DNA of 64,000 nt from Chelatococcus asaccharovorans (GTDB lineage Bacteria > Pseudomonadota > Alphaproteobacteria > Rhizobiales > Beijerinckiaceae), in the NCBI RefSeq assembly GCF_003201475.1, contig NZ_QJJK01000006.1, positions 186,001 to 250,000 on the forward strand, written 5' to 3'. Positions 21,793 to 62,120 of this stretch are shown in pieces (position 1 is the stretch's first letter; each line of letters begins with the position of its first letter). The notes beneath the pieces are model-generated. The model saw only the letters and a list, made by a program, of their open reading frames with translations. It was not told the DNA's origin and did not search any database. The position numbers were made by a program, and so were the translations under genes.

Positions 21793-23272
21793 GCCTGGCT
21801 CGCCTTCAGCCCCTCTCGTGGTCGTCGCCAGGATCAAGAGCGCCCTGCGCATCGTCCAGGCCGATGCCCATGCCCGCAGGCTTGGGCTGCGCCCCGGCCT
21901 CACCCTGGCCGATGCCCGCGCGCGCGTGCCGCATCTTGCCCTGGCCGATGAAGATCAGGCGGCGGATCTCGCCCTGCGCGATCACATCGCCGACTGGTGC
22001 GATCGCTATACGCCGCTCGTCGGCGTCGATGGCGAGGATGGCCTCCAGTTCGATATCACCGGATGCGCCCATCTGTTCGGGGGCGAAGCGGAGCTGCGCG
22101 ACGATCTCATGGCGCGCCTCGCAGGTCAGGGCTTCACCGTCCTGAGCGCCGTCGCCGACACGCCCGATGCGGCGCGCGCCGTCGCCCGCCACGGCCGGGG
22201 CGGGCTTGTCCCCTCAGGCACGGAAAGGGAAGCCGTCCGGCCCCTGCCCGTCGCCGCGCTCGACCTCGAGGGGCAGAAGCTCCGCGCCCTCACCCGCGCC
22301 GGTCTCACCACCATCGGTGATCTCGCCAGCCGGCCGCGGGCGCCGCTCGCCGCACGATTTGGCGCGGATCTCGTCGACCGGCTCGCCCGCACCCTCGGCG
22401 AGGCCGTGCATCCCATTTCACCGCGCCGGCCCGTGCCGGAATTGCTCGCGACACGGCGCTTCGCCGAGCCGATCGCCCTCATGGATACGGTGCTGGCGAC
22501 CTTGCGCGGCCTGGCCCAGGAGCTGGACGCCATGCTGGCGCAGCGCGGCGCCGGCGGGCGGCGATTCGAGGCCTCGCTCTATCGGGCGGACGGCGCCATC
22601 CGCCGCATCCGGATCGAGACCGGGCGTCCCCTGCGTGACGCAGCTATCGTGATCAGGCTCTTGTCCGAGCGGATCGCCGCCCTCGCCGACCCGATCGATC
22701 CGGGTTTCGGCTTCGACATGATACGCCTTGACGTTCTCGCGGCCGAGACGATGACCACGGTCCAGAGCGGCCTCGACGGCCGCCAGCACGACGCGGAAAG
22801 CCTGGCCGATCTCATCGACCGGCTGAGCGTGCGCTATGGCCAGGCGCGGGTTCTGCGCTTCACGCGCGAGGACAGCCATGTCCCGGAGCGCATGGCGCGC
22901 CTCGTTCCGGCGATCGCGCCAGAGGGCAGGCCGGATAGGGCCGGGGGAACCTGGCTCCAGGGGCAGGCCGGCGATCCTCCGGCCCAGCCGTTCTGCCTGT
23001 TCGATCCGCCGCAGCCCATCGAGACTCTGGCCGAGGTGCCGGACGGGCCGCCGCTGCGCTTCCTGTGGCGGCGGGTGCTGCACGAGATTGCGGCCGCCGA
23101 GGGGCCGGAACGCATCGCACCGGAATGGTGGCGCGGGGCCGAGGGCGCGCTGACCCGCGACTATTTCCGTGTCGAAGACCGCAACGGCCACCGCTTCTGG
23201 CTGTTCCGCGAGGGCCTCTATGCGGTGGAGATCAAGCATCCCCGCTGGTTCCTGCACGGCCTGTTTGCCTAG
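21629..23272 (+). CDS. imuB: ImuB, catalytically deviant Y-family polymerase-like protein
   Basis: 547 aa, usual length for ImuB. YLALWLPLLATDRLHRL at the N-terminus lacks the DxD-type acidic start of active Y-family polymerases. ADARARVPHLALADED, LVGVDGEDGLQFDITGCAHLFGGE and the little-finger region match ImuB. It is thought to act as the hub that links DnaE2, ImuA and the beta clamp. The stop codon TAG (23270-23272) is formed by the edge of a repeat element, so the true ancestral end may have been disturbed or re-created by it. Confidence 0.92.
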   Translation: MTVPSEKRRYLALWLPLLATDRLHRLAARTGRPAGMSSPSMAIAMNGRDGGKPAEPGSPSAPLVVVARIKSALRIVQADAHARRLGLRPGLTLADARARVPHLALADEDQAADLALRDHIADWCDRYTPLVGVDGEDGLQFDITGCAHLFGGEAELRDDLMARLAGQGFTVLSAVADTPDAARAVARHGRGGLVPSGTEREAVRPLPVAALDLEGQKLRALTRAGLTTIGDLASRPRAPLAARFGADLVDRLARTLGEAVHPISPRRPVPELLATRRFAEPIALMDTVLATLRGLAQELDAMLAQRGAGGRRFEASLYRADGAIRRIRIETGRPLRDAAIVIRLLSERIAALADPIDPGFGFDMIRLDVLAAETMTTVQSGLDGRQHDAESLADLIDRLSVRYGQARVLRFTREDSHVPERMARLVPAIAPEGRPDRAGGTWLQGQAGDPPAQPFCLFDPPQPIETLAEVPDGPPLRFLWRRVLHEIAAAEGPERIAPEWWRGAEGALTRDYFRVEDRNGHRFWLFREGLYAVEIKHPRWFLHGLFA

Positions 23273-23372
23273 AGCATTTTCGCGTTTCTCCGAATCGCGG
23301 AAATGCTCCATGTTTTTGTTTTAGCGCATTTTCTTCACGCGAACCGGTGTCCACTTCGCTCGAAAATGCTCT
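23269..23372. repeat. 102-bp inverted-end repeat between imuB and dnaE2, carrying the imuB stop
   Basis: After CTAG at 23269 the element begins AGAGCATTTTCG and ends CGAAAATGCTCT, a perfect 12-base inverted match. Inside is GCGTTTCTCCGAATCGCGGAAATGC, another hairpin. It overlaps the imuB TAG stop and ends 22 bases before the dnaE2 ATG, so it sits inside an operon. The termini AGAGCA/TGCTCT are shared with the elements at 38.0, 40.0, 56.3 and 60.2 kb. Confidence 0.85.
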
Positions 23373-23394
23373 AAGGTCGCATCGAGACACCGCC

Positions 23395-26300
23395 ATGTCG
23401 GACGACATCATCCCGCCCCCTCTTCTTTATGGCGATCCGGTCGCCGCCACGCATTTTTCCTTCCTGCGCGGCACATCGCATCCGGCCGAGATGGTCCGGC
23501 GCGCCGCCGAACTCGGCCAGAACGGCATCGGCATCGCCGACCGCAACACGGTGGCCGGCGTGGTGCGCGCCTATGTGCCGGTGCGTGACGCCGCGCGCGC
23601 CTATACCAAAGAGAATGCTGGCGCCGCCCTGCCCTTCAAGCTTCTGGTCGGCGCCCGGCTTGCCTTCACGGACGGCACGCCGGACATCGTCGCCTATCCC
23701 GCCGATCGTGATGGTTGGGGTAGGCTCTGCCGCCTGCTCACGCTCGGCAACCGGCGCGGCCTCAAGGGCGAATGCCTCCTCACCCGCGATGATCTCATCG
23801 CCGACACCAGCAATCTCCTCCTCATCCTGATGCCGCCACGCGACATCCGTCTCTGCGCCGATCTCCTTCCCGTCCTGGCGGAGGCCGCCCCCGGGGCGCT
23901 ATGGCTCGGGGCCACCATGCCTCGTGGCGGGGCGGACCGGCGCCGTCTCATGGCCCTGAAAGCATTGGCCGAGGCCCATGACGTGCCGCTGATCGCCACC
24001 AGCGACGCCCTCTATGCAACGCCGGAGGAACGCCCCCTGCAGGACGTGGTCACCTGCATTCGCGAGGGCCTGAAGATCGCCAGCGCCGGGCGCATCCTGG
24101 AGGCCAATGCCGAGCGCCATCTGAAGGCGCCGGAGGAAATGGCACGCCTGTTCCGGGATGTCCCGGAAGCCATCGCCGAGACCCAGCATCTGTTCGCCCG
24201 CTCCGATTTCTGCCTGTCGCAGCTCAAATACGATTATCCCGAGGAGCCGGTTCCCCCGGGCAAGACGGCCCAGCACCATCTGGAGGATCTGGTGTGGCGG
24301 CGGGTGGCGCTGCGCTATCCCAAGGGCACGCCCGCGAAGGTCGACGCGTTGCTCAGGCAGGAACTCGCCTTCATCGCCGAGCAGGACTACGCCCGCTACT
24401 TCCTGACCATCCACGACATCGTGCGCTTCGCCGACGACAGGGGCATCCTCTGCCAGGGGCGCGGCTCGGCCGCCAATTCGGTGGTCTGCTTCATCCTCGG
24501 CATCACCAATGTCGACCCCGAACAGATCAACGTGCTCTTCGCGCGCTTCCTGTCCAAGGAACGCGACGAGCCCCCGGATATCGACGTCGATTTCGAGCAT
24601 GAGCGGCGCGAGGAGGTCATCCAGCACATCTACGCGCGCTATGGCCGCGAACGCGCCGGCATTGCCGCGACCGTCATCTGCTATCGCCCGCGCAGCGCCA
24701 TCCGCGAGGTCGGCAAGGTCTTCGGCCTGAGCGAGGACGTGACATCGGCGCTCGCCTCGACCGTCTGGGGCAGCCATGGGGATGAGCTGCCGGAAGGTCA
24801 TGTGCGCCAGGCCGGGCACCAGCCTCTCAATCCGGAGATCGCGCGGGCCGTCGATTTCGCCAACCGGCTCATGGGCGCCCCCCGCCACCTCTCCCAGCAT
24901 GTGGGCGGCTTCATTCTCACCCGCGGCCGGCTCGACGAGACCGTCCCCATCGGCAATGCGGCCATGCCGGAGCGCACCTTCATCGAATGGGACCGCGACG
25001 ACATCGACGTGCTCGGCCTGATGAAGGTCGACGTGCTGGCGCTCGGCATGCTCACCTGTATCCGCAAGGCGCTGGCGCTGTTGAAGGATGAGAAGGGCAT
25101 CGAGCAATCGCTGTCCTCGATCGAGGCTGACGACCAAGAGGTCTACGACATGCTGTGCCGGGGCGATTCCATCGGCCTCTTCCAGGTGGAGAGCCGCGCC
25201 CAGATGAGCATGCTGCCGCGCCTGAAGCCGCGGAAATTCTATGATCTCGTCATCCAGGTGGCGATCGTCCGGCCCGGCCCCATCCAGGGCAACATGGTCC
25301 ATCCCTATCTGCGCCGGCGTGCCGAGAAGGAAGCCGTCGTCTTTCCCTCGCCAGGGCCGGACTATCCGCAGGACGAACTGCAGCAGGTGCTCGGCGACAC
25401 CCTCGGCGTGCCGCTGTTCCAGGAACAGGCGATGCGGCTTGCCATCGTCGCGGCCGCCTTCACGGACGACGAGGCCAATGGTCTGCGCCGCGCCATGGCC
25501 ACCTTTCGCCATGTCGGGACCATCAACAGTTTCAAGGCCAAGATGGTCGAGGGCATGGTGCGGCGCGGCTATGCGCGCGACTTCGCCGAGCGGTGCTTTG
25601 CGCAGATCGAGGGCTTTGGCAGCTACGGCTTCCCGGAAAGCCATGCCGCCGCCTTTGCCCATCTCGTCTATATCTCGGCCTGGATCAAATGCTATCACCC
25701 GGACGTCTTCGCCTGCGCGCTGCTCAATTCCCAGCCCATGGGCTTCTATGCCCCGGCGCAGATCGTGCGGGACGCCGCAGAGCACGGCATTGAGGTCCGC
25801 GCCGCCGATATCAATGCGAGCCATTGGGACAATACGCTGGAACCCTGCGCGGGGGGAAAACACGCCTTGCGCCTCGGCCTGCGCCAGCTCGACGGCTTCC
25901 AGAAGGCCTGGGCCGAGGCGCTCGCCCGCCACCGCGGCATGGGCTTTCCCGATCTCGAGGCGCTCGCCCGGCGCACGGCCCTGCCCCGCCGCGCCCTTGA
26001 AATCCTGGCCGATGCCGATTCCTGCCGCTCGATAGGCCTCGACCGGCGCGAGGCGGCCTGGGCCGTGCGTCGCCTGCCCGACAGCCAGCCGCTGCCGTTG
26101 TTCGCCGCCGCGGATGCCGCCGAGCTTGCGGCGGAGCCGGACGTGCATCTGCCGGCCATGCCGCTGGCCGAACATGTCATCACCGACTATCAGACCGCCC
26201 GGCTGTCCCTGAAGGCCCACCCGGTCCATTTCCTGCGCCCGCTCTATCGGCGCGAGGGCCTCCTCTCCTGCGAGGAGGTGCGGCAGAGCCGCAACGGCCT

Positions 26301-26661
26301 CTGGGCGCGGACGGCCGGCATCGTGCTGGTGCGCCAGCGCCCCGGCAAGGGCAATGTGGTGTTCATGACCATCGAGGACGAAACCGGCATCGCCAATATC
26401 GTGGTCTGGGCCAATCTCTTCGCGCGCTTTCGCGGCGAGGTCATGGGGGCGCGCATCATCGAGATCGCCGGACAGATCCAGCGCAGCGAGGACGATGTCG
26501 TCCATGTCATCGCCCGCCGCCTCACCGACCGCAGCCGCGACCTCGGCCATCTCCGTGAGGGAGAGGGCCTTCAGGACGACGGCGCTGCGAGACGCGCGGC
26601 GCGCACGGGCGGCCATCCGCGCAATGTCCGGATCCTGCCGCGCTCACGCGACTTCCATTGA
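23395..26661 (+). CDS. dnaE2: error-prone DNA polymerase III alpha subunit DnaE2
   Basis: 1088 aa from ATG 23395, the normal DnaE2 length. It starts with a PHP domain (FSFLRGTSHPAEMVRRAAELG, IGIADRNTVAGVVRAY), then the C-family polymerase core with PDIDVDFEHERRE (catalytic acidic cluster) and GRGSAANSVVCFILGIT. The finger and helix-hairpin-helix regions follow, then an OB fold (TAGIVLVRQRPGKGNVVFMTIEDE). It copies past lesions during the SOS response together with ImuA/ImuB. The ribosome site is weak; the upstream repeat element ends 22 bases before the ATG and may have displaced the original one. Confidence 0.95.
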   Translation: MSDDIIPPPLLYGDPVAATHFSFLRGTSHPAEMVRRAAELGQNGIGIADRNTVAGVVRAYVPVRDAARAYTKENAGAALPFKLLVGARLAFTDGTPDIVAYPADRDGWGRLCRLLTLGNRRGLKGECLLTRDDLIADTSNLLLILMPPRDIRLCADLLPVLAEAAPGALWLGATMPRGGADRRRLMALKALAEAHDVPLIATSDALYATPEERPLQDVVTCIREGLKIASAGRILEANAERHLKAPEEMARLFRDVPEAIAETQHLFARSDFCLSQLKYDYPEEPVPPGKTAQHHLEDLVWRRVALRYPKGTPAKVDALLRQELAFIAEQDYARYFLTIHDIVRFADDRGILCQGRGSAANSVVCFILGITNVDPEQINVLFARFLSKERDEPPDIDVDFEHERREEVIQHIYARYGRERAGIAATVICYRPRSAIREVGKVFGLSEDVTSALASTVWGSHGDELPEGHVRQAGHQPLNPEIARAVDFANRLMGAPRHLSQHVGGFILTRGRLDETVPIGNAAMPERTFIEWDRDDIDVLGLMKVDVLALGMLTCIRKALALLKDEKGIEQSLSSIEADDQEVYDMLCRGDSIGLFQVESRAQMSMLPRLKPRKFYDLVIQVAIVRPGPIQGNMVHPYLRRRAEKEAVVFPSPGPDYPQDELQQVLGDTLGVPLFQEQAMRLAIVAAAFTDDEANGLRRAMATFRHVGTINSFKAKMVEGMVRRGYARDFAERCFAQIEGFGSYGFPESHAAAFAHLVYISAWIKCYHPDVFACALLNSQPMGFYAPAQIVRDAAEHGIEVRAADINASHWDNTLEPCAGGKHALRLGLRQLDGFQKAWAEALARHRGMGFPDLEALARRTALPRRALEILADADSCRSIGLDRREAAWAVRRLPDSQPLPLFAAADAAELAAEPDVHLPAMPLAEHVITDYQTARLSLKAHPVHFLRPLYRREGLLSCEEVRQSRNGLWARTAGIVLVRQRPGKGNVVFMTIEDETGIANIVVWANLFARFRGEVMGARIIEIAGQIQRSEDDVVHVIARRLTDRSRDLGHLREGEGLQDDGAARRAARTGGHPRNVRILPRSRDFH

Positions 26662-26681
26662 TGCGGGCGCGACATCTCACC

Positions 26682-26800
26682 GGTCATCCCGGAAGCCGCC
26701 CAGCGGCTGTCCGGGATCCATGAACACCGCGCATCTTCATGGATCACCGACAATGTTCATGGGTCCCGGGCTCAAGCCTGCGGCTTGCCCCGGGATGACC
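26682..26800. repeat. GTCATCC-type inverted repeat downstream of dnaE2
   Basis: GGTCATCCCGG at the left is mirrored by CCGGGATGACC at the right, with ATCCATGAACA and TGTTCATGGGTCC inside. The same architecture, in diverged form, is at 50986-51130 and inside the MITE-like element at 6.7-6.9 kb. Confidence 0.7.
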
Positions 26801-26872
26801 GGCGCTTGACCCTGCACCCCGCATCCCCTCATCCGGCTCTGCGAGCCGACCTCTCCCGTCCGGGAGAGGTAA

Positions 26873-27290
26873 GCGGTGGAGGTGGTCGTGTCTCATCACG
26901 TCAGTCGCGCCGCGCCGATCCCTCCCCTCAGGGGAGGGTGGCGCCGCAGGCGCCGGGTGGGGTCCACCTGATGCTGACCCGACCGGGAGACGGCAAGATG
27001 TGCTGGCCAGTGGAGCAGGTTCTGCAGCCTCGTGCCCCACCCGACCTCGCTCACGCGAGGCCACCCTCCCCGACGGAGAGAGGTGGGCGGTGGAGGTGGT
27101 CGTGTCTCATCACGTCAGTCGCGCCGCGCCGATCCCTCCCCTCAGGGGAGGGTGGCGCCGCAGGCGCCGGGTGGGGTCCACCTGATGCTGACCCGACCGG
27201 GAGACGGCAAGATGTGCTGGCCAGTGGAGCAGGTTCTGCAGCCTCGTGCCCCACCCGACCTCGCTCACGCGAGGCCACCCTCCCCGACGG
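26873..27290. repeat. tandem duplication of a 214-bp block of CCTCCCC/GGGGAGG modules
   Basis: Positions 26873-27076 and 27087-27290 are the same sequence at an offset of exactly 214 bases. I saw no differences reading the two copies side by side over about 200 bases. Each copy holds CCTCCCCTCAGGGGAGGG, GCGCCGCAGGCGC, GGTGGGG and CCTCGCTCACGCGAGG hairpin modules, as in the block at 4.2-4.4 kb. The near-identity points to a recent duplication or gene conversion. No gene is supported in 26662-27339. Confidence 0.85.
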
Positions 27291-27339
27291 GGAGGGATCG
27301 CGGCGATGGTTCCCGCCTTGTCATCCCAAGCGCTTCTTG

Positions 27340-28428
27340 TCATCCTAGGCGTCGCGCAGCGACGGGAACGGGATCCACCCTCTTGCCGTGCGTGTCGAAG
27401 AAATGCAGCTTATCGACGGGGGCCGCGACCTTGAGCTTGCCGGTCTCCGGCACGGCCGCACGGCCGGGCAGGCGCACGACGACGGACGCGTCCTGCACGC
27501 GGGCGTAGAGATAGCTCTCCGCCCCGACAGGCTCCAGCACATCGATCGTCACGTCGAAGGTGATGAGGCCTGCAGACCCGGCCTCAGCCGATTTGGCTTC
27601 GACGGTGCCGAGATCCTCGGGGCGGATGCCGACCGTCACGGCGTCGGCCGGCAGAAGGCCCTCGAGCACCGCTCCGACGGCCGAAAGGTGATCGGGTGTC
27701 AGGAGATTCATGGGCGGCGCACCGATGAAGCTCGCCACGAAGGTCGTCGCCGGCTCCTCATAGACATCGAGCGGCGCCCCCACCTGCTCGATCCGGCCGC
27801 TGTTCATGACGACGAGGACATCGGCGAGCGTCATCGCCTCGAGCTGGTCGTGGGTGACATAGATGCTGGTGACGCCGAGATCGCGCTGCAACTTGCGGAT
27901 CTCGACGCGCATCTGGCCGCGCAGCTTGGCATCGAGGTTGGACAAGGGCTCATCGAAGAGAAAGACCTTGGGATCGCGGACGATGGCACGGCCCATGGCG
28001 ACGCGCTGGCGCTGCCCGCCCGAGAGCTGGCGCGGCCGGCGATCGAGCAGCGAGCCGAGCTCCAGCATCCGCGCCGCTTCGCGCACCTTGCGCTCGATCT
28101 CGGGTTTCGGCGTGCCGCGGTTGCGCAGGCCATAGGCCATGTTGTCGTAGACGCTCATATGCGGATAGAGCGCGTAGTTCTGGAACACCATGGCGATGTC
28201 CCGCTCCGCCGGCTCCAGCGCATTCACGACGCGGCCGTCGATCTCGATGGTGCCGCTGGATATCTCCTCGAGCCCGGCAATCATGCGCAGCAGGGTGGAC
28301 TTGCCGCAGCCGGACGGGCCGACGAGCACACATAAGGCGCCATCCGGCACGGTGAGGTCGATCCCCTTCACCGCTTCCATGCCGCCGGCATAGACCTTGC
28401 GCACTGTCTTCAGAGCAACTGTCGCCAT
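27340..28428 (-). CDS. ugpC: sn-glycerol-3-phosphate ABC transporter ATP-binding protein UgpC
   Basis: 362 aa from ATG 28428, which follows the ugpE stop by one base. The Walker A (GPSGCGKST), signature ([15 protein letters not shown]), Walker B ([16 protein letters not shown]) and H-loop ([14 protein letters not shown]) are complete. The C-terminal TOBE/MalK-type regulatory domain follows. It energises uptake of glycerol-3-phosphate or its diesters by UgpBAE. Its last residues ([11 protein letters not shown]) are encoded by sequence that resembles the GTCATCC/GGGATGAC intergenic repeats, so the natural C-terminus may be altered. Confidence 0.93.
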
Positions 28429-28429
28429 C

Positions 28430-29302
28430 TTACTTTTCCGTCTCGACAAGGCCCTTGACGAACCAGCGCTGCATCAGCACGACGACGGCCACCGGTGGCA
28501 GGATCGCGAAGATCGTCGTCACCATCACGAGATGCCACTGGGTGTCGGCGTCGGCATAGGAGATCATCTTGCGGAGCGCGATGATGATCGTGTTCATGTC
28601 GTTGCTGTTGGTGACCAGAAGCGGCCACAGATACTGCGTCCATCCGTAGATGAAGAGGATGACGAAGAGCGCCGCGATATTCGTCTTCGACAGGGGCAGC
28701 ACGAAGTCGAAGAAGAAGCGCCACGGGCCGGCGCCATCGACGCGGGCGGCCTCGAGAAGCTCGCCCGGGATGGTCATGAAGAACTGGCGGAACAACAGCG
28801 TCGCCGTGGCCGAGGCCATCAGCGGCAGGGTGAGGCCCGTGTAGGTATCGATGAGGCCGAGATCCACCATGACCTTGTAGGTCGGCAGGATGCGCACTTC
28901 GACCGGCAGCATCAGGGTGATGAAGATCACCCAGAAGAACGTCATCCGGAAGGGAAAGCGGAAAAAGACGATCGCATAGGCCGAGAGGATCGAGATCACG
29001 ATCTTTCCGACTGCCACGGAAAGCGCGACGATCGAGGTATTGAGGAGCAGCGTCCACACATTGATGCCGCCGACGCGGCCGAGCCCGCCGAACAGGGCTT
29101 CGTAGTAGTTGTCGAGGAAGTGGCTGCCGGGCAGGAGCTGCAGCGGCGGCCGCAGGATCTGCTGCAGGGACAGCGTGGAGGCCACGAAGGTATAATAGAT
29201 CGGGAAGACGACGATCAGGATGCCGGCGATCAGGACCGCGTGGCTGACCCAGGGGGATCTGCGGGATCTGCTGGTCGTCCCCGCCTCTGTGCGCTCAGGC
29301 AT
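28430..29302 (-). CDS. ugpE: sn-glycerol-3-phosphate ABC transporter permease UgpE
   Basis: 290 aa from ATG 29302; its start overlaps the end of ugpA by 8 bases. Six membrane segments are predicted, beginning [21 protein letters not shown]. The EAA loop that contacts the ATPase is [24 protein letters not shown]-type periplasmic loop lengths and [12 protein letters not shown] match UgpE. Part of the ugpB-A-E-C operon. Confidence 0.93.
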
Positions 29303-30179
29303 AATGCACCTTGCGCTCGACATAGCGGAACTGGATGGCGGTCAGGGCGATGACGATCCCCATCAGGATGACCGACTGGGCAGCCGAGCTGCCGAGCATG
29401 AGATTGACGAAGCCATCGTTGTAGACCTTGTAGACGAGCGTCTCCGTCGCCTTGCCCGGCCCGCCGCTGGTGACGGCGTGGATGATCCCGAAGGTGTCGA
29501 AGAAGGCATAGACGGTGTTGACCACGAGCAGGAAGAAGCTCGTCGGTGCGAGCAGCGGAAAGACGATGGTCCAGAAGCGCTTCACCTCGCGGGCACCATC
29601 CACGGCCGCCGCCTCGAGGAGACTCTTCGGAATGGCCTGTAACCCCGCGACAAAGAACAGGAAATTGTAGCTGATCTGCTTCCAGGCGGCCGCCATGATG
29701 ATCATCAGCATGGCCTGGTTGCCGTTGAGCAGCGGATCCCAGTCATAGCCGGCCCGGCGCAGCATATAGGCGAAGGTGCCGATGGTCGGGTTGAACAGGA
29801 ACAGCCACAGCATGCCGGCGATGGCCGGCGCGACCGCATAGGGCCAGATCATGAGCGTGCGGTAGAAGCCCCTGCCCTTGATCACCTTGTCGGCCATGAC
29901 AGCCAGCACGAGCGCGATCGCCATGGGGATCAAGGCTGTCGCGGCGGAGAAGATGATCGTCGTCTGGACCGAGCCGATATAGTCGGGATCGCTGAGGACC
30001 TGCCGGAAATTGCCCAAGCCGACGAAGGTGGTGACGAGACCGAACGGGTCTTCGCGCAGCGTCGACTGGCGCAGCGCCTGGGAGGCCGGCCAGTAGAAGA
30101 AGACGAGCGTGATGGCGATCTGCGGCACAAGCAGCAGATACGGCAGCACCTTGTGGGGAAAGATGACCCGTGATGTCAC
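29295..30179 (-). CDS. ugpA: sn-glycerol-3-phosphate ABC transporter permease UgpA
   Basis: 294 aa with six membrane segments ([19 protein letters not shown] at the start). The EAA loop is [40 protein letters not shown], just after the first segment, is the usual periplasmic entry loop. It pairs with UgpE in the inner membrane. It follows ugpB with a strong intercistronic hairpin between them. Confidence 0.93.
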
Positions 30180-30213
30180 GCGGGCTCCATGGTCGGCAGA
30201 TCCAGACGAGGAT

Positions 30214-30238
30214 CCGCCCGCGACAGGGTCGCGGGCGG
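30214..30238 (-). terminator. intercistronic hairpin between ugpB and ugpA
   Basis: An 11-bp perfect stem CCGCCCGCGAC / GTCGCGGGCGG with loop AGG and no T run on the minus strand. Such hairpins after a binding-protein gene usually protect its mRNA or partly attenuate the permease genes, giving more binding protein than permease. Confidence 0.7.
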
Positions 30239-30255
30239 GACTGAACAGGCCGGAT

Positions 30256-32703: not shown

Positions 32704-32727
32704 CCCCAAGGAACGACGGAGCGGCGC

Positions 32728-37883: not shown

Positions 37884-38025
37884 CCTCGTCACCTCAGACA
37901 TGTACCCCAGTCGCGCGGGAACGCCAAAGCCGGAAGGCCATTTCACCGCAAGAGGAGGGCACCAGCCCGATCGAGACGGAGACGTATCGCGAGCTTTGGG
38001 GGCCAAGCACGCGCCCCCGAGCGTT

Positions 38026-38130
38026 AGAGCAAGTCCGTCTTTGCGGACTTGCTCCGCTCAAAGGTTAACGGGCAAATTCACCGGCTTAGGTGGCATCAGA
38101 CGTTTCCATCCAAGTCGGATTTGCCCGAGC
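38026..38130. repeat. AGAGCAAGTCCG-type repeat (105 bp)
   Basis: Begins AGAGCAAGTCCGTCTTTGCGG with hairpin CAAGTCCG/CGGACTTG, continues GGGCAAATTCACCGG and GGTGGCATCAGACG, and ends TCCATCCAAGTCGGATTTGC. It matches the element at 40021-40124 over most of its length. It lies 38 bases from the stop of the minus-strand helicase-like gene. Confidence 0.8.
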
Positions 38131-39763: not shown

Positions 39764-39766
39764 TCC

Positions 39767-50974: not shown

Positions 50975-50985
50975 GCATCGCCGCT

Positions 50986-51130: not shown

Positions 51131-51157
51131 GCGGCGTTTCGGTGCGAGATCAGCTTG

Positions 51158-51211: not shown

Positions 51212-51247
51212 AATCTGGCTGCGCCTTTGGTTCGTCCGAAGCGACGT

Positions 51248-52591: not shown

Positions 52592-52639
52592 GATCTCGAC
52601 TGACAGAAACGAACAAGGAAGGAGCAGGCCGGTTGGGGC

Positions 52640-55327: not shown

Positions 55328-55382
55328 AGACCATTGCCAGTGATTAATTTTCCGAATTTCCTTACAGAAGAAATGAATTGCC

Positions 55383-56348
55383 ATGATGATCACGTTTAGA
55401 CATCTTCGCTACTTTGAGGCTCTTTCGCGGCACAGGCATTTTGGACGCGCCGCCGAAGAATGTTCCGTGACCCAGCCCGCGCTCTCGATGCAGATGCGTG
55501 AACTGGAGACCTTGCTGGGGACGCCGCTGATCGAGCGCCGGCGCGGCGATGTCCAATTGACGGAGGTCGGCCACGAGGTGGCGCGGCGCGCCCGTGACAT
55601 TCTGGCGACTGTGCTCGATCTCACGGAGTTCACGCGACGGACGAGTGGCCCTCTGTCCGGCCCCTTCGTCCTCGGCGCTGAGCCCTCCATCGCCCAATAT
55701 CTCATTCCCGGCACCCTGCCCCATATCAAAGCCGGCTTTCCGTCGCTGGAGCTGACATTCCGCGAGACGCTGACGGGCGCCCTCGTTGGCGAATTGATTG
55801 CGGGCCGAATCGACGCGATCCTCGTCTCCCTGCCACTCGACCACGCCGATGTCGAGACGCTGCCGCTGTTCGACGAGCACCTTCTCTATGTGGCTCCGAC
55901 ACAGAGCCACCTGAACCTGCCGTCTCACATGCTTACGCCGAGCCTGGTGGCCGCCGACCAGCTCGTCCTCCTGGAAGACGGCCACGGTCTGCGCGAACAG
56001 GTGCTGAGCTACTGCAACGTTCCGCCCGCGCTCGTGCGCCAGCAGAACGGCGCCAGCAGCCTTTCGACATTGGTCCAACTCATTGCCAATGGCTATGGCG
56101 TGACACTGCTACCCGAGATGGCGGCGGCCATCGACGTGGACGAGGAGACCCCGGTCAGCCTGTCGCGCTTCCGCGAGCCGGCACCCCTGCGTACCATCGG
56201 GCTCGCCTGGCGGCGCAGTTCGCCGCGCATCGAAGATTTCCGTGCCCTCGGCGAAATCATCGCCGCCGCCGGGCAACGGCTGATCGAACAGTGCCGTCGA
56301 CGCCTGCCGCTCGTCGAGGAACTGCCGCCTGCGCGCATCGCATCATAG
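55383..56348 (+). CDS. LysR family regulator, OxyR-like but lacking the peroxidatic Cys
   Basis: 321 aa. The winged helix (LRYFEALSRHRHFGRAAEECSV, TQPALSMQMRELE) is typical LysR. The sensor domain is OxyR-like: QLVLLEDGHGLREQVLSYC aligns with the E. coli segment around Cys199 and Cys208. The first Cys is Gly (residue 202); the second is kept (Cys211), with the same spacing of nine. Classic disulfide peroxide sensing is therefore unlikely. It follows the methyltransferase by 55 bases, same strand. Its TAG stop is formed by the edge of a repeat element. Confidence 0.9.
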   Translation: MMITFRHLRYFEALSRHRHFGRAAEECSVTQPALSMQMRELETLLGTPLIERRRGDVQLTEVGHEVARRARDILATVLDLTEFTRRTSGPLSGPFVLGAEPSIAQYLIPGTLPHIKAGFPSLELTFRETLTGALVGELIAGRIDAILVSLPLDHADVETLPLFDEHLLYVAPTQSHLNLPSHMLTPSLVAADQLVLLEDGHGLREQVLSYCNVPPALVRQQNGASSLSTLVQLIANGYGVTLLPEMAAAIDVDEETPVSLSRFREPAPLRTIGLAWRRSSPRIEDFRALGEIIAAAGQRLIEQCRRRLPLVEELPPARIAS

Positions 56349-56453
56349 AGCAAATCCGGCTTAGATGGAAGCGCCTTATGCCATCTAGGATATTGAATTT
56401 GCTCGTTAATTTTCGAACGATGCCAAGTCCGCAAAAGACTCACTTGCTCTAGC
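56346..56453. repeat. AGAGCAA-type repeat carrying the stop of the OxyR-like gene
   Basis: Begins TAGAGCAAATCCGG at the stop codon and ends CACTTGCTCTAG with CTAG at 56450-56453. Inside are GATGG ... CCATC arms and GAATTTGCTCG. In reverse orientation it matches the elements at 38.0 and 40.0 kb (CCAAGTCCGCA, AGCAAATTC). Confidence 0.82.
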
Positions 56454-56472
56454 CCGGGCGCGCCCGACAAAG

Positions 56473-56499
56473 CGCCCTCCGCCTGGCCGGAGGGCGTTT
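56473..56499 (+). terminator. probable Rho-independent terminator after the OxyR-like gene
   Basis: Stem CGCCCTCCG / CGGAGGGCG with loop CCTGGC, followed by TTT. It separates the regulator from the omptin gene. The rest of the gap to 56677 contains no gene. Confidence 0.7.
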
Positions 56500-56677
56500 G
56501 CCCCATAGGGGTGCCGCACCCGCAAGATGCCGTCTCACGGCAACCATTCGCGCCAGACTGCCGTTAGACGGGCCGGAACGACATCGCCTTTGCGATGCGA
56601 TCAACACGCACTGCTTAGACGGCCTCACTTCGACGAGATCTTTTCACTCTCAATTGAGTAGAGGGGATCTCCGAATA

Positions 56678-57640
56678 ATGTCGATGGTGCGAAACGCCGC
56701 CTTGGCCGTATGGCTCGTCGGGAGCGGCGCTGCCGAGGCGCGCGATGTGGAAACCACCCGCCAGGCCGGCTTCACAAGTGTCCGTTGGGATGTCTCGGTC
56801 TATTCCGGCTACTTGACCGGACAGGCGACGGAACTGGTGTACAGAACCGCAACGGGAGAGAAACTTAGTCAGCTTAACTGGCAGATCGACAGGGCGCTTG
56901 TTCTGGGCGGTTCGGCGGGCTTTCATCCGCTCGACTGGCTCACCCTGCGACTCGGCGGGTGGAGCAATATAGCAGCCGCCGCCGCCATGGATGATTTCGA
57001 TTGGTTCGCGGATTATCAGGGCTTCCAGTCCTGGACCCATTGGTCGCACCACGACACCGGGATGACCCGTGCCGTTCAATTCGACCTGAACCTCACGGCG
57101 CGGCTTTGGCAGCACGAGGGCTTCCGGCTGTCCGCCCTGGGCGGCTACAGGGCGCTTCATTTCAAATGGAAAGCGTATGGCGGCCCGTTCATCCAAAGCG
57201 TGTATGATTTTCGTGATGTTGTGGGAACGTTCCCGCATGCCCTCGGGATAACCTATCGGCAGGACTGGCATAGTCCCTATGTCGGCTTGCGCGCGCAATA
57301 TGACGGGGCGCAGTGGAGCCTGACGGCCGAGGCCACGGGCAGCCTGTTCGGACGGGCATCGGGTATCGATCACCATCTCTGGCGTGCCACCCTGTTCAAT
57401 GATGACTTCCGCAATGTCCGGATGGTCGGGGCGACCCTAGCCGCCGAATACCACATCGCGGATAGCCTGTCCTTGATGGCCAGGGCGGACTATCAGCGCC
57501 TCGGTGAAGCGCGCGGCTCTGTAACGGAGAACAACTACGCATCCACAATGGGGGCCATAGTCCAGCGCCACTGGCGCACAGGCGCCGGTGCGTCCCTCGA
57601 AATGGCAATCGTCTCGCTTGGTCTTAAAGCGCGATGGTGA
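56678..57640 (+). CDS. omptin family outer membrane protease
   Basis: 320 aa from ATG 56678. A short signal peptide (AALAVWLVGSGAAEA|RD) is followed by a barrel with alternating hydrophobic strands. The omptin catalytic residues are visible: Asp106 and Asp108 in MDDFDWF, and Asp231/His233 in GIDHHLW. LNWQIDRALVLGG matches the LxW...A strand of the family. The C-terminus LGLKARW ends with an aromatic residue as barrels do. Omptins cut between basic residues at the cell surface. A ribosome site GAGGGG is 12 bases upstream. The family is uncommon in Hyphomicrobiales, to my knowledge. Confidence 0.86.
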   Translation: MSMVRNAALAVWLVGSGAAEARDVETTRQAGFTSVRWDVSVYSGYLTGQATELVYRTATGEKLSQLNWQIDRALVLGGSAGFHPLDWLTLRLGGWSNIAAAAAMDDFDWFADYQGFQSWTHWSHHDTGMTRAVQFDLNLTARLWQHEGFRLSALGGYRALHFKWKAYGGPFIQSVYDFRDVVGTFPHALGITYRQDWHSPYVGLRAQYDGAQWSLTAEATGSLFGRASGIDHHLWRATLFNDDFRNVRMVGATLAAEYHIADSLSLMARADYQRLGEARGSVTENNYASTMGAIVQRHWRTGAGASLEMAIVSLGLKARW

Positions 57641-57809
57641 GCGGTTTTCGGACGGAGCCTGAAGCCGATCATCGGCGGCGTCACAGAGGCGCGCAAAAAG
57701 GGTCGCCGTAGACTGCGAGACGAGAACAAATGAAGGGCGAAAGTTGGAACACCCGGCCCGAAAAAATTGGAACACACTTTTCGGGGGTCTGCTAAGCCAT
57801 TGAAACCAA

Positions 57810-57886
<77 letters not shown>

Positions 57887-58315
57887 GTGGCAAGCCAGCA
57901 GCTCGCTGCGGTGTGAAGGGGTGATTAATGGGGCCCCTGCCCGCTGTCAAGCGGCTCTGTGGATATCTCGTCACGGATTGCGAGGCCGGGACGTGCGACA
58001 ATTCATGAGCAACCTCGCGTTTGATCGAAAAATTGGCAGTTGAAGGGCGCAAACAAGAGTTGGCGACGCGCCGTCACCGGGGCGCCCTACGCCCGTGTCC
58101 GCGAATCCCCATGCGGGGTAGCGCGCCGCGGCCAGAGCCATATCCCGGCGCAGCGCATGAGCCGGACTGAAAATGCCCGCCAAACGCCTGATCAAGCTCA
58201 TATTACCTATAGTTGCACACAGTCAGAAATAAATCCGAAAGTAGAATCCGCGGAGACCCTTTCCATCAAACGGCTCCCCGCCTCACGCTGAAGTCTTGCA
58301 AACGTCATCCCGACG
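57887..58315. other. intergenic region without a supported gene
   Basis: About 430 bases between tRNA-Asp and the EcfG-type promoter. The stretch 58190-58260 is AT-richer. Small overlapping frames occur on both strands without ribosome sites. Confidence 0.45.
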
Positions 58316-58340
58316 GGAACCCCGACCTCTCCAGCGCGTT
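58316..58340 (+). promoter_or_regulatory. candidate EcfG (general stress sigma factor) promoter
   Basis: GGAAC (58316-58320), 16 bases, CGTT (58337-58340) exactly fits the alphaproteobacterial general-stress promoter GGAAC-N16/17-CGTT. It lies 49 bases before the ATG of the KGG-repeat stress protein, a gene type often under such control. The pattern alone could occur about once by chance in a window of this size. Confidence 0.65.
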
Positions 58341-58388
58341 TACACCGTAACGTCGCCAAGCGCAGGGATTAACGCTGAGGAGAGGCGT

Positions 58389-58643
58389 ATGCCAAAAGAG
58401 AAATCATCGACCCGAGGCTTTGCCTCTATGGACGAGGCGAAGCAGCGCGCAATTGCGTCGAAAGGCGGTCAAAGCGTGCCCAATGAGAAGCGCAGCTTTT
58501 CCCAGAATCGCGAACTCGCCGCCAAGGCGGGGCGCAAGGGGGGCCGCAGCGTGCCGGACGAGAAGCGTAGCTTCTCCCAGAACCCGGATCTCGCAGCTCA
58601 GGCTGGGCGCAAGGGCGGCCAGGCGTCGCACAGCACGCGATAG
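58389..58643 (+). CDS. KGG-repeat stress-induced protein (Con-10 type)
   Basis: 84 aa. Start ATG 58389 with GAGGAGAGG upstream. Three KGG motifs: AIASKGGQSVPNEKRSFS, AAKAGRKGGRSVPDEKRSFS and AAQAGRKGGQ. The family (stress-induced acidophilic repeat) is small, hydrophilic and disordered, and accumulates in stationary phase or desiccation. The upstream EcfG-type promoter supports general stress control. The two central repeats are close to identical at the DNA level, so they arose by internal duplication. Confidence 0.88.
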   Translation: MPKEKSSTRGFASMDEAKQRAIASKGGQSVPNEKRSFSQNRELAAKAGRKGGRSVPDEKRSFSQNPDLAAQAGRKGGQASHSTR

Positions 58644-58751
58644 CCACCGCCGGCTGAGATGAAGGCTGGACGGCCCCAAGGCATGGCCCCAAGGCACGGC
58701 CGCAAGACATCGTCCTTCGGAACGCACCGCGCCGGGCCGGAGGAGATAGGG

Positions 58752-58811
58752 ATGGAAACGAGCAAAGAGCAATCAACGGGAGAAACGGATGCGCCAGCAG
58801 CCAACCCCTAA
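58752..58811 (+). CDS. possible 19-codon leader peptide overlapping the next gene
   Basis: ATG 58752 has GGAGGAGATAGG directly upstream, the strongest ribosome site in the area. The frame encodes METSKEQSTGETDAPAANP and ends at 58811, 23 bases inside the following gene in a different frame. Translational coupling is inferred; it may also be fortuitous. Confidence 0.35.
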   Translation: METSKEQSTGETDAPAANP

Positions 58812-59022
58812 TACCGCTCCGCGAAAGGAAACGACGCGCAAGGAAAAGGAAGCGGCACGCGCCGTCGAAGACAAGCTTGACCAAAGTCTCGAGGACAGCT
58901 TCCCGGCAAGCGATCCGCCAAGTATGACGCGGGCGCCCGCGGACAAGTCTTCGACCAAATTTCCCCCACCGACGGGGGCCAGTCGCAAGACACCAGCCCG
59001 CGATGATTTGAAACGTCACTGA
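58789..59022 (+). CDS. small hydrophilic protein with SFPASDPPS motif
   Basis: 77 aa, charged and without hydrophobic segments. ATG 58789 follows GGGAG by seven bases. The segment KLDQSLEDSFPASDPPSMT is a conserved signature of small uncharacterised proteins in Hyphomicrobiales, often next to stress genes. It follows the KGG gene by 145 bases on the same strand, so a shared stress role is plausible. Function unknown. Confidence 0.75.
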   Translation: MRQQPTPNTAPRKETTRKEKEAARAVEDKLDQSLEDSFPASDPPSMTRAPADKSSTKFPPPTGASRKTPARDDLKRH

Positions 59023-59155
59023 ACACGCATCCATCGCGGGTGCGATCGTGCCCCAAATGCATCACTTGTTACAGATGCATCATTAAGGCCGATTTTCCTG
59101 ATCGCGCCATTCCCTTGCCGCTTTTTGCCCTTCTTTTGGCACATAAGGATAGCTC

Positions 59156-59188
59156 ATAAGCAATTCTGTGAGGGTCAGGATTGCTTAT
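59156..59188. promoter_or_regulatory. inverted repeat ATAAGCAAT-N15-ATTGCTTAT upstream of the barrel protein
   Basis: A perfect 9-base inverted repeat centred 134 bases before the start of the Omp25/31-type gene. A second signal, ATGCATCA as a direct repeat, lies about 90 bases further upstream. Either may be an operator; the regulator is unknown. Confidence 0.45.
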
Positions 59189-59305
59189 ATCGATCGACAG
59201 CATTCGATCCTTGGCTCATCGGCAGCGATCGATCTTGGCTGTTGGTCTCTTCTGCATCGGGAAAGAAGCCTGACCCGTGCGCTTAAAATATAGATGGAGT
59301 TGATC

Positions 59306-60085
59306 ATGAAAGGCGCCACTTTTCTCGCAGCAGTCGCGGCATCCGCGGTTATAGCGAGCGCTGGGCTTGCGACCGGAGCCCTCGCTGCGGATCTACCGTC
59401 GCGTACGGTCGCCCCTGTGGCCCCTGCGCCCATCGTTCCCATATTCACGTGGACCGGCTTCTATGTCGGTGTGAACGCGGGTTACGGCTGGAACACGAAT
59501 AGTAACAACAACAACGCCGCCTATGTGCCGGGCGTCGGCTATATCGGCAGCGGCAGCAGTGGCAGCGACGGCGGCTTCGTTGGTGGTGGCCAGATCGGCT
59601 ACAACTATCAGTTCGGTCAGTTCGTCGCGGGTGTCGAGGCCGACATTCAATATGCCGATATGCAGTCGAACAACAATGGTGGCGCCTATTATGCTGGAAC
59701 CGGCTATATCGGTTCACAGAGCAACGGCGTTGATTGGTTCGGCACCTTGCGCGCCCGTCTCGGCTTCGCCGTCGACCGGGCCCTGATCTACGCGACCGGC
59801 GGTTTCGCCTATGGCGGCGGCGGTGGCAACAATGGCTATTACTACAATGGCTTGTACTACAAGAATGGCGACGATACCAGCACTGGCTGGACGGTCGGCG
59901 GCGGCGTTGAATACGCCTTCACCGACAATATCACCGCCCGTATCGAGGGTCTTTATGTGAACCTCGGCAAGAGCGGCAGCAACGCCTATGTGTATGACGC
60001 CAGCACCTTCGGTGGCAGCAATCGCAAGGATACGGAGTTCGGCGTGGTTCGGGCCGGCCTGAACTACAAGTTCTCGAGCTTCTGA
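59306..60085 (+). CDS. outer membrane beta-barrel protein (Omp25/Omp31 type)
   Basis: 259 aa from ATG 59306, with TGGAG nine bases upstream. The signal peptide ends GALA|ADLPSRT, a typical Omp25/31 junction. FTWTGFYVGVNAGYGW, GGFVGGGQIGYNYQFGQFVAGVEADIQY, WFGTLRARLGFAVDRALIYATGGFAYG and the terminal GVVRAGLNYKFSSF mark an 8-strand porin-family barrel. The loops are unusually Asn/Gly/Tyr-rich (NTNSNNNNAAY, NNNGGAYY, NNGYYYNGLYY), which suggests fast-changing surface loops. Probably an abundant surface protein. Confidence 0.92.
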   Translation: MKGATFLAAVAASAVIASAGLATGALAADLPSRTVAPVAPAPIVPIFTWTGFYVGVNAGYGWNTNSNNNNAAYVPGVGYIGSGSSGSDGGFVGGGQIGYNYQFGQFVAGVEADIQYADMQSNNNGGAYYAGTGYIGSQSNGVDWFGTLRARLGFAVDRALIYATGGFAYGGGGGNNGYYYNGLYYKNGDDTSTGWTVGGGVEYAFTDNITARIEGLYVNLGKSGSNAYVYDASTFGGSNRKDTEFGVVRAGLNYKFSSF

Positions 60086-60141
60086 TCGCTATTGCGCCCG
60101 GGTACTGCGCGCCGCGAGACAGGAGCACCCGGGACACCAAG

Positions 60142-60245
60142 ACCAGATCCGACCAGGATGGAATCGTTCGATACCATCCTGGTCGGTGAATTTGCTCGTC
60201 TATTGTTGAGCGTTGCCAAGTCCGCAAGAGACGGGCTTGCTCTAG
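60142..60245. repeat. repeat of the AGAGCAA family carrying the gmk stop codon
   Basis: Hairpin GACCAGGATGG / CCATCCTGGTC (60151-60184), then GGTGAATTTGCTCG, TTGCCAAGTCCGCAAG and CTTGCTCTAG. Read on the minus strand it starts CTAGAGCAAG, and its TAG is the gmk stop. CTAG is at 60242-60245. Confidence 0.82.
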
Positions 60246-60883
60246 CGCTCGCCGAGCAGATGATCAACATAGGCTTCCAGCCCGATCCGGCGTTGGCGCT
60301 TCAGGCGCTCGGCGGTCAGGATCGCCACAAGCTGGTTGAAGGCCTGATTCAGGTCGTCATTGATCAGCACATAATCATAGGCCTCCCACCGCGCGATTTC
60401 CGTGCGGGCATTGTCGAGGCGTTTGGCGATGACATCGGCCGCGTCCTCGGCACGTCGGTCAAGCCGGTTACGCAATTCGGCGAGCGACGGTGGCAGGATG
60501 AACACCGTCACCACGTCCTCACGCATCTTCTCGACGATCTGCTGGGTGCCCTGCCAATCGATGTCGAACACCATGTCGCGCCCTTCAGACAGGGCTTTTT
60601 CGACCGGCTGCCGCGGCGTGCCATAGAAATTGCCGTGCACCTCGGCCCATTCGAGCAGGTCGCCGCGATCGCGCCGGAAGAGAAACTGGTCCTTCTCGAT
60701 GAAATGGTAATGGACGTCCCCCACCTCGGACGGCCTGCGCGCACGCGTCGTCACGGAGATCGAGAGCTGCAGTTCGAGCTCCTTCTGCTCGATCAGGGTG
60801 CGGGTCAAGGTGGTCTTGCCGGCGCCCGACGGCGACGACAGGATGAGCATCAAACCACGGCGGGCAATTTCAACGGGAGCCAT
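60242..60883 (-). CDS. gmk: guanylate kinase
   Basis: 213 aa from ATG 60883, four bases after yicC. The P-loop SSPSGAGKTTL, GMP site SVTTRARRPSEVGDVHYHFI and GNFYGTPRQPVEKAL, and DIDWQGTQQI are complete. It phosphorylates GMP to GDP. A downstream repeat element supplies the TAG stop. A much longer open frame upstream is an artefact of the yicC region. Confidence 0.96.
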   Translation of the reverse strand: MAPVEIARRGLMLILSSPSGAGKTTLTRTLIEQKELELQLSISVTTRARRPSEVGDVHYHFIEKDQFLFRRDRGDLLEWAEVHGNFYGTPRQPVEKALSEGRDMVFDIDWQGTQQIVEKMREDVVTVFILPPSLAELRNRLDRRAEDAADVIAKRLDNARTEIARWEAYDYVLINDDLNQAFNQLVAILTAERLKRQRRIGLEAYVDHLLGER

Positions 60884-60887
60884 CGGC

Positions 60888-61775
60888 CTACTCGACGTTT
60901 TGGGACTGTTCACGGAACTGATCGATTGTCGCCTTGAGATCAAGCCCGATCGCCGTGAGCGAAACGTCATTGGCCTTGGCGCACAGGGTATTGGCTTCGC
61001 GACCGAACTCCTGGGCGAGAAAATCGAGCTTGCGCCCGCAGGCGCCTCCCTCCGCCAACAGGCTGCGCGCAGCCGCCACGTGAGCCACCAGCCGATCGAG
61101 CTCTTCGCGAATATCGGCCTTGGCGGCGAGCAGCGCGGCCTCCTGATGCAGACGTTGGGGGTCGAGCGCCTGGGACGCCCCGAGCAGAAGCGCGACCTGC
61201 TCGGCGAGCCGCGCGCGGATGGCCTCCGGCTGTCGCGCGGGATTAGCTGCCGCCGCGGCGCTCGAGGCACTGATTCGATCAAGCTGCTCGCCCAGAACCG
61301 CAGCGAGCGCCTCGCCCTCCGCTGTCCTGGCAGCCGAAAGCCCGGCGACGGCCCGAGCGAGCCCGGCCTTGAGGTCGGCCGCCAGCGCCTCCTGCACCTC
61401 GGGTGCGTCGAGCTCGACGCTCGCTTCCACGATGCCGCGCAGACCGAGCAGTCCGTCGAGCGAAGCCGGACGGACACCATCCGGCAGGTCCACCCGGCCT
61501 ATGGCGGCGAGGACGGCCGCAAGCGCGGCTTCATTGATCCGCACGGTCGGCTCGGCGTCGACCTGGCTGACGACGAGGCCGACATGGCAGGTGCCGCGCG
61601 TCACCGCCTTGGACAGCGCAACCCGCGCCTCCTCCCCGAAGACCTCGTAGCCTGGCGTTGTCTTGAGGCGAATGTCGAGGCCGCGTCCGTTGACACTGCG
61701 GATTTCCCAGGCCCAGCGAAATGGCCCGCTGACGCCCGTCTCGCGGGCAAATCCCGTCATGCTCGCAATTGTCAT
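60888..61775 (-). CDS. yicC: YicC family endoribonuclease
   Basis: 295 aa. SMTGFARETG at the N-terminus, EIRSVNGRGLDIRLKTTPGYE and the C-terminal GRKLDFLAQEFGREANTLCAKANDVSLT (DUF1732 end) are diagnostic. The family was recently shown to be a metal-dependent RNase. The yicC-gmk pair is conserved in alphaproteobacteria. The gap 61776-62116 upstream holds only a repeat. Confidence 0.95.
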   Translation of the reverse strand: MTIASMTGFARETGVSGPFRWAWEIRSVNGRGLDIRLKTTPGYEVFGEEARVALSKAVTRGTCHVGLVVSQVDAEPTVRINEAALAAVLAAIGRVDLPDGVRPASLDGLLGLRGIVEASVELDAPEVQEALAADLKAGLARAVAGLSAARTAEGEALAAVLGEQLDRISASSAAAAANPARQPEAIRARLAEQVALLLGASQALDPQRLHQEAALLAAKADIREELDRLVAHVAAARSLLAEGGACGRKLDFLAQEFGREANTLCAKANDVSLTAIGLDLKATIDQFREQSQNVE

Positions 61776-62021
61776 CGAACGATCCCGCCTTTCCTCAGCC
61801 CATCAACGCAGTCTGCGCAGGCGGCACCTTACTCCATCGGCGGACGATGTGGAGGAGGCGTGCGAAAAATACGATGCTTTGGCAACAGGATAGACCATCC
61901 GCCCGCACGACTCGCATGCCGGCGCGGCCTTCCCGACGGCGGTCGCCAGGCACAATGGGCCTAACCATGCCGGGGGGATCGTGAGCGAGCCCTCTTCCGC
62001 CCGCACACCAGGCCTTGCGCC

Positions 62022-62120
62022 GATCCGACTTCGATGGAATCGTCCGCCACGATCCAAGTCATTGACTTTACTCGTCTATTATCGAGCGGAGGCAATCCGC
62101 AGAAGACGGACATGCGCTAG
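62022..62120. repeat. degenerate AGAGCAA-family repeat carrying the mltG stop codon
   Basis: GATCCGACTTCGATGGAATCG, TTGACTTTACTCGTCTATTATCGAG and GCAATCCGCAGAAGACGGA resemble the 60.1-60.2 kb element position by position. On the minus strand it starts CTAGCGCATG; the TAG is the mltG stop. CTAG is at 62117-62120. Confidence 0.7.

What the first reader, a model, noticed from the sequence alone, without database searches (positions are those of the whole stretch)
23269..62120. Repeat elements whose terminal (C)TAG is the stop codon of four genes
At imuB (23270-23272), the OxyR-like gene (56346-56348), gmk (60242-60244, minus) and mltG (62117-62119, minus) the TAG stop is at the same time the first three bases of an AGAGCA-family repeat; in three cases the junction reads CTAG. 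CTAG is rare inside proteobacterial genes, so an element that targets CTAG would fall on C-TAG stop codons and restore the stop. This would be a neat way for a mobile palindrome to insert without killing genes, while adding a 3' hairpin to the mRNA. The coincidence at four genes is seen directly; the targeting mechanism is inferred.
Basis: partly seen in the sequence, partly recalled or inferred. Interest (0 to 1): 0.8.

Follow-up and report, generated by a model that had tools for sequence, protein, structure and literature searches.

The report
Mobile repeats landing on stop codons
Short hairpin-forming mobile repeats, found in many soil alphaproteobacteria, insert at the rare sequence CTAG, which is often the end of a gene, and they carry the letter that rebuilds the TAG stop signal, so they can spread without breaking genes.

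Summary
In detail: four window genes (imuB, a LysR gene, gmk, mltG) end on the first TAG of a ~105-nt repeat. In 1.45 Mb of the genome, 21 of 89 incoming genes end exactly there, against 9 ending 1-30 nt before it. In 107 loci of other genomes it is 60 of 129. The repeats are two-arm, TA-bounded elements resembling CIR repeats. Filled and empty Rhizobium plasmids show the mechanism: 15 empty sites read CTAG 10, TTAG 3, CTAA 1, GTAA 1, never TGA, and insertion duplicates TA. The body starts with G, so insertion at the TA of TAG or TAA rebuilds TAG. Copies inside genes are rare (1 of 62; 1 of 103), although 21-30% of other CTAG sites are in genes. No mobilising transposase was found. New here: target, TA duplication and stop repair for this repeat type.

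The parts
21818..23272 (+). imuB (IMS family); TAG stop 23270-23272 is the left end of the element
   Evidence: the longest ORF starts at 21629
23270..23373 (+). family A element, TA-GAGCATTTTCG...CGAAAATGCTC-TA; reconstructed target C-TA-A
38025..38128 (+). family B element, right end decayed, not at a stop codon
40020..40125 (+). family B element, both ends intact, 13 nt after a called TAA-ending short gene; reconstructed target C-TA-A
55467..56348 (+).
56346..56451 (-). family B element; reconstructed target A-TA-G
60139..60244 (-). family B element, far end decayed; supplies TAG to gmk
60242..60850 (-). gmk, guanylate kinase; stop codon on element
62015..62119 (-). family B element, strongly decayed; supplies TAG to mltG
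62117..63283 (-). mltG/YceG-like gene; stop codon on element
63796..63824 (+). 29-nt stretch 93% like the left end of family B (partial copy)
   Evidence: family D20

Best explanation
The repeats are ~105-nt non-autonomous mobile elements (MITE-like, of the alphaproteobacterial CIR kind). They insert into the TA of YTAR sites, mostly the palindrome CTAG, and duplicate the TA. The element body is GAGCA...TGCTC, so the first base after the duplicated TA is always G. An insertion whose TA belongs to a TAG or TAA stop therefore leaves a TAG stop at the same codon, whichever way round the element lies. CTAG is about nine-fold rarer than base composition predicts, and a share of the remaining sites are C-TAG stops. 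Insertions inside genes are rarely kept, so surviving copies pile up at stop codons and in intergenic gaps. Shown: the coincidence, the empty sites, the TA duplication, the same-codon stop and the rarity of copies inside genes. Inferred: cut-and-paste by a trans-acting DDE transposase of IS630 or IS5/IS427 type, and purging of harmful insertions by selection.
For: Empty/filled pairs in Rhizobium plasmids: AraC empty GGC-CTAG-AGGAGCC in 3 of 3 against filled GGC-CTA[el]TG-GAGGAGCC; ROK empty CTAG 5 of 6 and TTAG 1 of 6; intergenic GFA/SLC13 empty CTAG 2 of 2; convergent pair TTAG 2 of 2; GntR CTAA and GTAA. Five loci, 15 empty sites: CTAG 10, TTAG 3, CTAA 1, GTAA 1, TGA 0. Two further fetched records are not counted because they hold remnants: L396 (half an element) and L409 (37-nt remnant next to a CTAG). 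Own genome against congeners, 8 sites with alignments at E < 1e-10: TA present at 5 (C1:719048, C1:719960, C1:561928, C6:143977, C6:158745) and absent at 3; at C1:719048 three congeners read CTAG. Targets rebuilt from copies with both ends intact: own CTAG 9, CTAA 5, TTAG 3, other 2 of 19; other genomes CTAG 39, CTAA 10, TTAG 4, TTAA 1, other 6 of 60. The outer bases vary between otherwise near-identical young copies, so they are target, not element. CTAG: 443 against 4027 expected in 1.26 Mb. Full-length copies: own 19 stop, 42 intergenic, 1 in gene, against CTAG sites 60, 257, 135; other genomes 45, 57, 1 against 32, 165, 52. gshA in 13 Bosea genomes: two separate insertions in opposite orientation at the same stop, and 11 empty sites TAG 4, TAA 5, TGA 2. 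IS630 preference for the TA of CTAG is a known precedent (title in the reference list of PMC2170065).
Against: The congeners of the four window genes have TGA at the stop. Over 12 element-stop genes G003 has TGA in 7, against 10 of 86 for own TAG stops without an element (p = 0.0007). C-TAG stops do turn over to TGA more than other TAG stops (7 of 29 against 2 of 48), but not enough to close the gap. The two empty Bosea gshA genes nearest to one hit are G-TAG, not C-TAG. Copies sit at stops more than a pure CTAG-target null predicts: own 19 of 61 against 19% (p = 0.02), other genomes 45 of 102 against 16% (p = 3e-11); selection or an extra preference is needed. No DDE_3 (IS630) match in the genome, and the 3.2 kb around each of two DUF4096 (IS5-type) genes holds no TAGAGCA end.
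Confidence: 0.85

Rival explanations
1. The element can also enter TGA stops and turns them into TAG, for example by a recombination step that replaces the target dinucleotide with the element's own TA, so stop codons as such are the target.
For: 7 of 12 element-stop genes have TGA in the congener G003, against 10 of 86 for other TAG stops. At imuB the flanks are 96-97% identical to two congeners, which have TG where the element's TA sits. Copies are at stops more than CTAG sites are.
Against: 15 of 15 empty sites in close Rhizobium plasmids have TA and none TGA. In gshA of Bosea the two nearest empty relatives have TAG. The base on the far side is G in 16 and A in 3 of 19 own, and G in 34 and A in 12 of 46 other full-length d=0 copies; a swap of TG for TA inside TGA would leave A.
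Confidence: 0.08
2. No targeting: elements land anywhere, and those whose TAG falls in frame near a gene end survive because the gene is only slightly shortened.
For: Any TA insertion in the right frame gives TAG because the body starts with G. One Rhizobium gene was indeed shortened next to a copy.
Against: Stops are at the same codon as in relatives in 12 of 13 comparisons with G003. Intergenic empty sites are CTAG too, and rebuilt targets are YTAR in 54 of 60 copies of other genomes.
Confidence: 0.03
3. The repeats are REP-type elements moved by a RAYT Y1 transposase, whose GTAG tag happens to give stop codons.
For: GTAG REPs are reported to provide TAG stops to flanking ORFs (PMC3733652, passage seen).
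Against: These elements are ~105 nt with two arms, not 20-40 nt; both ends are TA-bounded and a TA is duplicated. The base before TAG is mainly C and is variable target sequence.
Confidence: 0.03

Closest known systems
CIR (Caulobacter CerM/CcrM-associated intergenic repeats; Chen and Shapiro 2003, described in PMC2229807)
   Same: About 105-110 nt, two hairpin arms joined by a linker, GANTC in the element, TA at the termini, alphaproteobacteria including Caulobacter, hardly ever inside genes.
   Different: The published CIR sequences could not be compared (paper not held). PMC2229807 gives a question mark for the CIR target duplication and says that the mobility mechanism needs more information; here a TA duplication, YTAR target and stop repair are shown.
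IS630 / Tc1-mariner family and its MITEs (e.g. RUP of pneumococcus)
   Same: TA target duplication; IS630 prefers the TA of CTAG (title of Tenzen and Ohtsubo 1991); RUP is a 107-bp repeat with insertions at TA, proposed to be moved by IS630-Spn1.
   Different: No IS630 DDE_3 transposase was found in this genome, and no autonomous partner with matching ends was found.
GTAG-tagged REPs (PMC3733652)
   Same: Repeat ends often provide TAG stop codons to flanking ORFs.
   Different: 20-40 bp palindromes, tied to Y1 (RAYT) transposases; that they lack a target duplication is recalled, not taken from a call.
Bru-RS1 and Bru-RS2 of Brucella
   Same: Two related palindromic repeats of 103 and 106 bp in an alphaproteobacterium (passage in PMC10800456).
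   Different: Sequences were not compared here.

Membership tests
CIR elements | ~110 nt, two long inverted-repeat arms joined by a linker | tested here: met
   104-105 nt consensus; the fold of one A and one B copy gives two hairpins
CIR elements | conserved GANTC site | tested here: met
   11 of 20 A and 31 of 42 B full-length copies have one or more; genome rate 1.36 per kb
CIR elements | intergenic in alphaproteobacteria, present in Caulobacter | tested here: met
   1 of 62 and 1 of 103 full-length copies in genes; Caulobacter loci
CIR elements | sequence match to published CIR1-CIR4 | not testable with these tools
   paper not held
IS630-type MITE | TA target duplication with preference for CTAG | tested here: met
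IS630-type MITE | ends shared with an IS630-family transposon | tested here: not met
   no PF13358 match in G000; other hosts not searched
IS5/IS427-type MITE | ends shared with an IS427-type transposon | tested here: inconclusive
   2 DUF4096 loci in G000; one has an inverted repeat bounded by CTA..TA, but its ends differ from the element's
REP/RAYT | short GTAG palindrome of 20-40 bp | tested here: not met
   elements are 104-105 nt and TA-bounded

The most novel reading that the evidence does not exclude
A mobile element whose end sequence is fitted to its target: G as first body base turns any TAA or TAG it hits into TAG, so stop codons are its preferred safe harbour. It has colonised alphaproteobacterial stop codons on a genome scale (21 of 213 TAG stops in the sampled part of this genome), possibly with a second route that converts TGA stops.
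Probability: 0.25. Interest if true: 0.75.

Novelty: new variant of a known kind. Interest (0 to 1): 0.55.

Why it matters
It gives a simple, testable reason why some bacterial repeats are almost only intergenic and crowd at gene ends: a rare palindromic target that doubles as a stop codon, plus an element end that repairs the stop. If these are CIR repeats, it supplies the target and duplication that a 2007 review left open. It also means that stop-codon choice, and hairpins after the stop, are in many alphaproteobacterial genes set by a mobile element.

Tried and rejected
Rejected: a 4-nt CTAG duplication. The outer base differs between the two sides (CTA...TAA; TTA...TAG), so the duplication is TA. 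Rejected: C and G as part of the element; they vary among near-identical young copies. Rejected: gene shortening as the general case; the Rhizobium convergent pair is an exception. An earlier count said that the two convergent Rhizobium genes overlap by CTAG in the empty strain. That is wrong: the empty site is TTAG, and the filled strain has also lost about 26 nt of one gene. L409, first taken as an empty site, holds a 37-nt remnant and was dropped.

Weaker than hoped: the preference of intergenic copies for convergent gaps is clear in the own genome (20 of 43 against 50 of 247 CTAG sites, p = 0.0004) but not in the other genomes (10 of 33 against 20 of 87, p = 0.48, edge cases left out). The 43 include the one copy classed as in a gene.

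Little use: two Bosea gene searches hit accessory genes. The genus of G093 has three distant members. Family B gave no plasmid match. Rfam finds only tRNAs in the window. The plasmid search with L382 gave no clean empty site among the rows seen.

Paper searches listed no paper on CTAG-targeting repeats restoring stops; I saw listings for all, and passages of PMC3733652, PMC2229807 (section 7 whole), PMC10969869, PMC10800456, PMC2170065, PMC5082802 and PMC2873474.

Dropped before counts; orthologs under 65% identity, orthologs with an unaligned C-end over 6 codons, and one d=0 gene whose relative stops two codons earlier; elements with repeated flanks counted once. One search's loci were picked by an exact 35-mer with one free base that includes one intact TAG end, which biases orientation but not gene position; only congener alignments at E < 1e-10 were counted.

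Full report
What is there. The window holds seven copies or partial copies of two repeat families: A (23270-23373) and B (38025, 40020, 56346, 60139, 62015, and a 29-nt piece at 63796). Both consensus elements are 104-105 nt, bounded by TA on each side (TA-GAGCA...TGCTC-TA), fold into two hairpin arms and often carry a GANTC site (11 of 20 A, 31 of 42 B full-length copies).

Is it chance? I read 1.45 Mb of the 7.25-Mb genome and called 1259 genes with a codon-usage caller of my own (TGA 897, TAG 213, TAA 149). nhmmer found 86 copies, 62 of them with both ends. Of 89 copy ends with a gene pointing at them within 300 nt, 21 genes end exactly on the element's TAG, 9 end 1-30 nt before it and 4 end inside. 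About one in ten TAG stops of the sample lies on an element. In 107 loci of other genomes (Bosea, Caulobacter, Bradyrhizobium, Xanthobacter, Pleomorphomonas and others, capped list) the figure is 60 of 129. Public annotation of Rhizobium plasmids shows the same for GntR, ROK and AraC genes, 3 of the 8 plasmid loci fetched.

What the target is. Copies with both ends intact give the base before the left TA and after the right TA: own genome CTAG 9, CTAA 5, TTAG 3, CTAT 1, ATAG 1 (n = 19); other genomes CTAG 39, CTAA 10, TTAG 4, TTAA 1 and six others (n = 60). Young copies that are nearly identical inside differ at these outer bases, so they are target and not element.

Empty sites. Plasmids of Rhizobium strains that carry or lack a copy are the clearest evidence (for the records; 90, 105, 114, 119 for the alignments). 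AraC: three empty strains read CTAG at the stop, and the filled one CTA[element]TG-G. ROK: five of six empty strains CTAG, one TTAG; in L390 and L395 the sequence beyond the site is rearranged. GFA/SLC13, intergenic: two of two CTAG. GntR: CTAA and GTAA in two strains at 85-87% identity. A convergent gene pair: TTAG in two empty strains; the filled strain has also lost about 26 nt of one gene, and both genes now end on the element. So 15 of 15 empty sites have the TA: CTAG 10, TTAG 3, CTAA 1, GTAA 1, TGA none. Two more fetched records hold remnants and are not counted (L396, L409).

Own genus. The three congeners are 81-84% identical in aligned stretches of C6. Eight own sites align across the junction with a congener at E < 1e-10: TA is present in the relative at C1:719048 (CTAG), C1:719960, C1:561928, C6:143977 and C6:158745, and absent at imuB (TG), window 40020 (TG or GA) and C1:773698 (AG). 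For the four window genes every congener found has TGA at the same codon (imuB 2, LysR 2, gmk 3, mltG 3). Over all 12 element-stop genes with a same-position ortholog in G003, the relative has TGA in 7, TAG in 4 and TAA in 1; own TAG stops without an element have TGA in 10 of 86 (Fisher p = 0.0007). C-TAG stops change to TGA more than other TAG stops (7 of 29 against 2 of 48). This lowers but does not remove the gap, and I leave it as an open point. In Bosea, gshA was hit twice independently, in opposite orientations; the 11 empty genomes have TAG 4, TAA 5, TGA 2, and the two nearest to one hit have TAG, preceded by G rather than C.

Why stops. CTAG is nine-fold under-represented (443 against 4027 in 1.26 Mb). 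Outside elements, the own sample has 60 CTAG at stops, 257 intergenic and 135 inside genes; full-length elements are 19, 42 and 1. In the other genomes' loci CTAG sites are 32, 165 and 52, and elements 45, 57 and 1. Elements are thus nearly absent from genes (p about 5e-8 and 1e-7) and enriched at stops beyond the CTAG share (p = 0.02 and 3e-11). Own intergenic copies favour convergent gaps (20 of 43 against 50 of 247), but the other genomes do not show this clearly (10 of 33 against 20 of 87). Removal of harmful insertions is the simplest reading; a preference for gene ends is not excluded.

How it works (inferred beyond this point). Because the body begins with G on both ends, TA plus G is always TAG. 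Insertion at a TAG or TAA stop therefore repairs the stop in either orientation. The TA duplication and CTAG preference match IS630-type transposition (precedent seen as a title in the reference list of PMC2170065; TA duplication for ISY100 in its abstract). The genome has no IS630 DDE_3 match and only two DUF4096 loci, without matching ends in the 3.2 kb seen, so the mobiliser may be lost, of another family, or elsewhere.

Known relatives. The anatomy fits the CIR repeats as described in PMC2229807 (section read), for which the table gives the target duplication as a question mark (passage). The original CIR sequences could not be compared. Family A also occurs in 54 of 119 genomes of the same family and in 140 plasmid records, mostly Rhizobium and Sinorhizobium. 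That repeats can provide TAG stops is known for GTAG REPs (PMC3733652, passage). The searches named in Tried and rejected listed nothing on stop repair by CTAG targeting. I rate it a new variant of a known kind.

Noticed in passing
G000 C1:585333-585540 and C6:146827-147036: Head-to-tail copies of A and B share a single TA (AA in the second), as expected if a second element inserts into the TA at the end of the first.
   Followed up: partly
G000 C1:807801 and related sites: An A element sits in another repeated sequence at CCAC-TA-GTGG, and paralogous copies without the element are present in the same genome with an intact CTAG.
   Followed up: partly
Bosea gshA, L322 and L325: Two species carry the element at the same stop codon in opposite orientation, i.e. 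independent hits on one site.
   Followed up: yes
window 26841-27268: A 214-nt unit repeated in tandem, 95% identical.
   Followed up: no
window 20548-20612: A 13-nt tandem array, GGAACCACACAGG and variants.
   Followed up: no
L132 around 1424-2248: An IS5-type (DUF4096) locus with an inverted repeat bounded by CTA..TA, unlike the element's ends; it may share the target habit.
   Followed up: partly
L106 downstream of gmk (congener G002): After the TGA of gmk there is a stretch that by eye resembles a decayed B arm in the other orientation.
   Followed up: no
L228, L286, L291, L205 (Bosea sp. BK604): Several A copies are followed directly, across one TA, by a different sequence beginning GCGCATCGGCCCGA or a close variant, perhaps another repeat family.
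   Followed up: no
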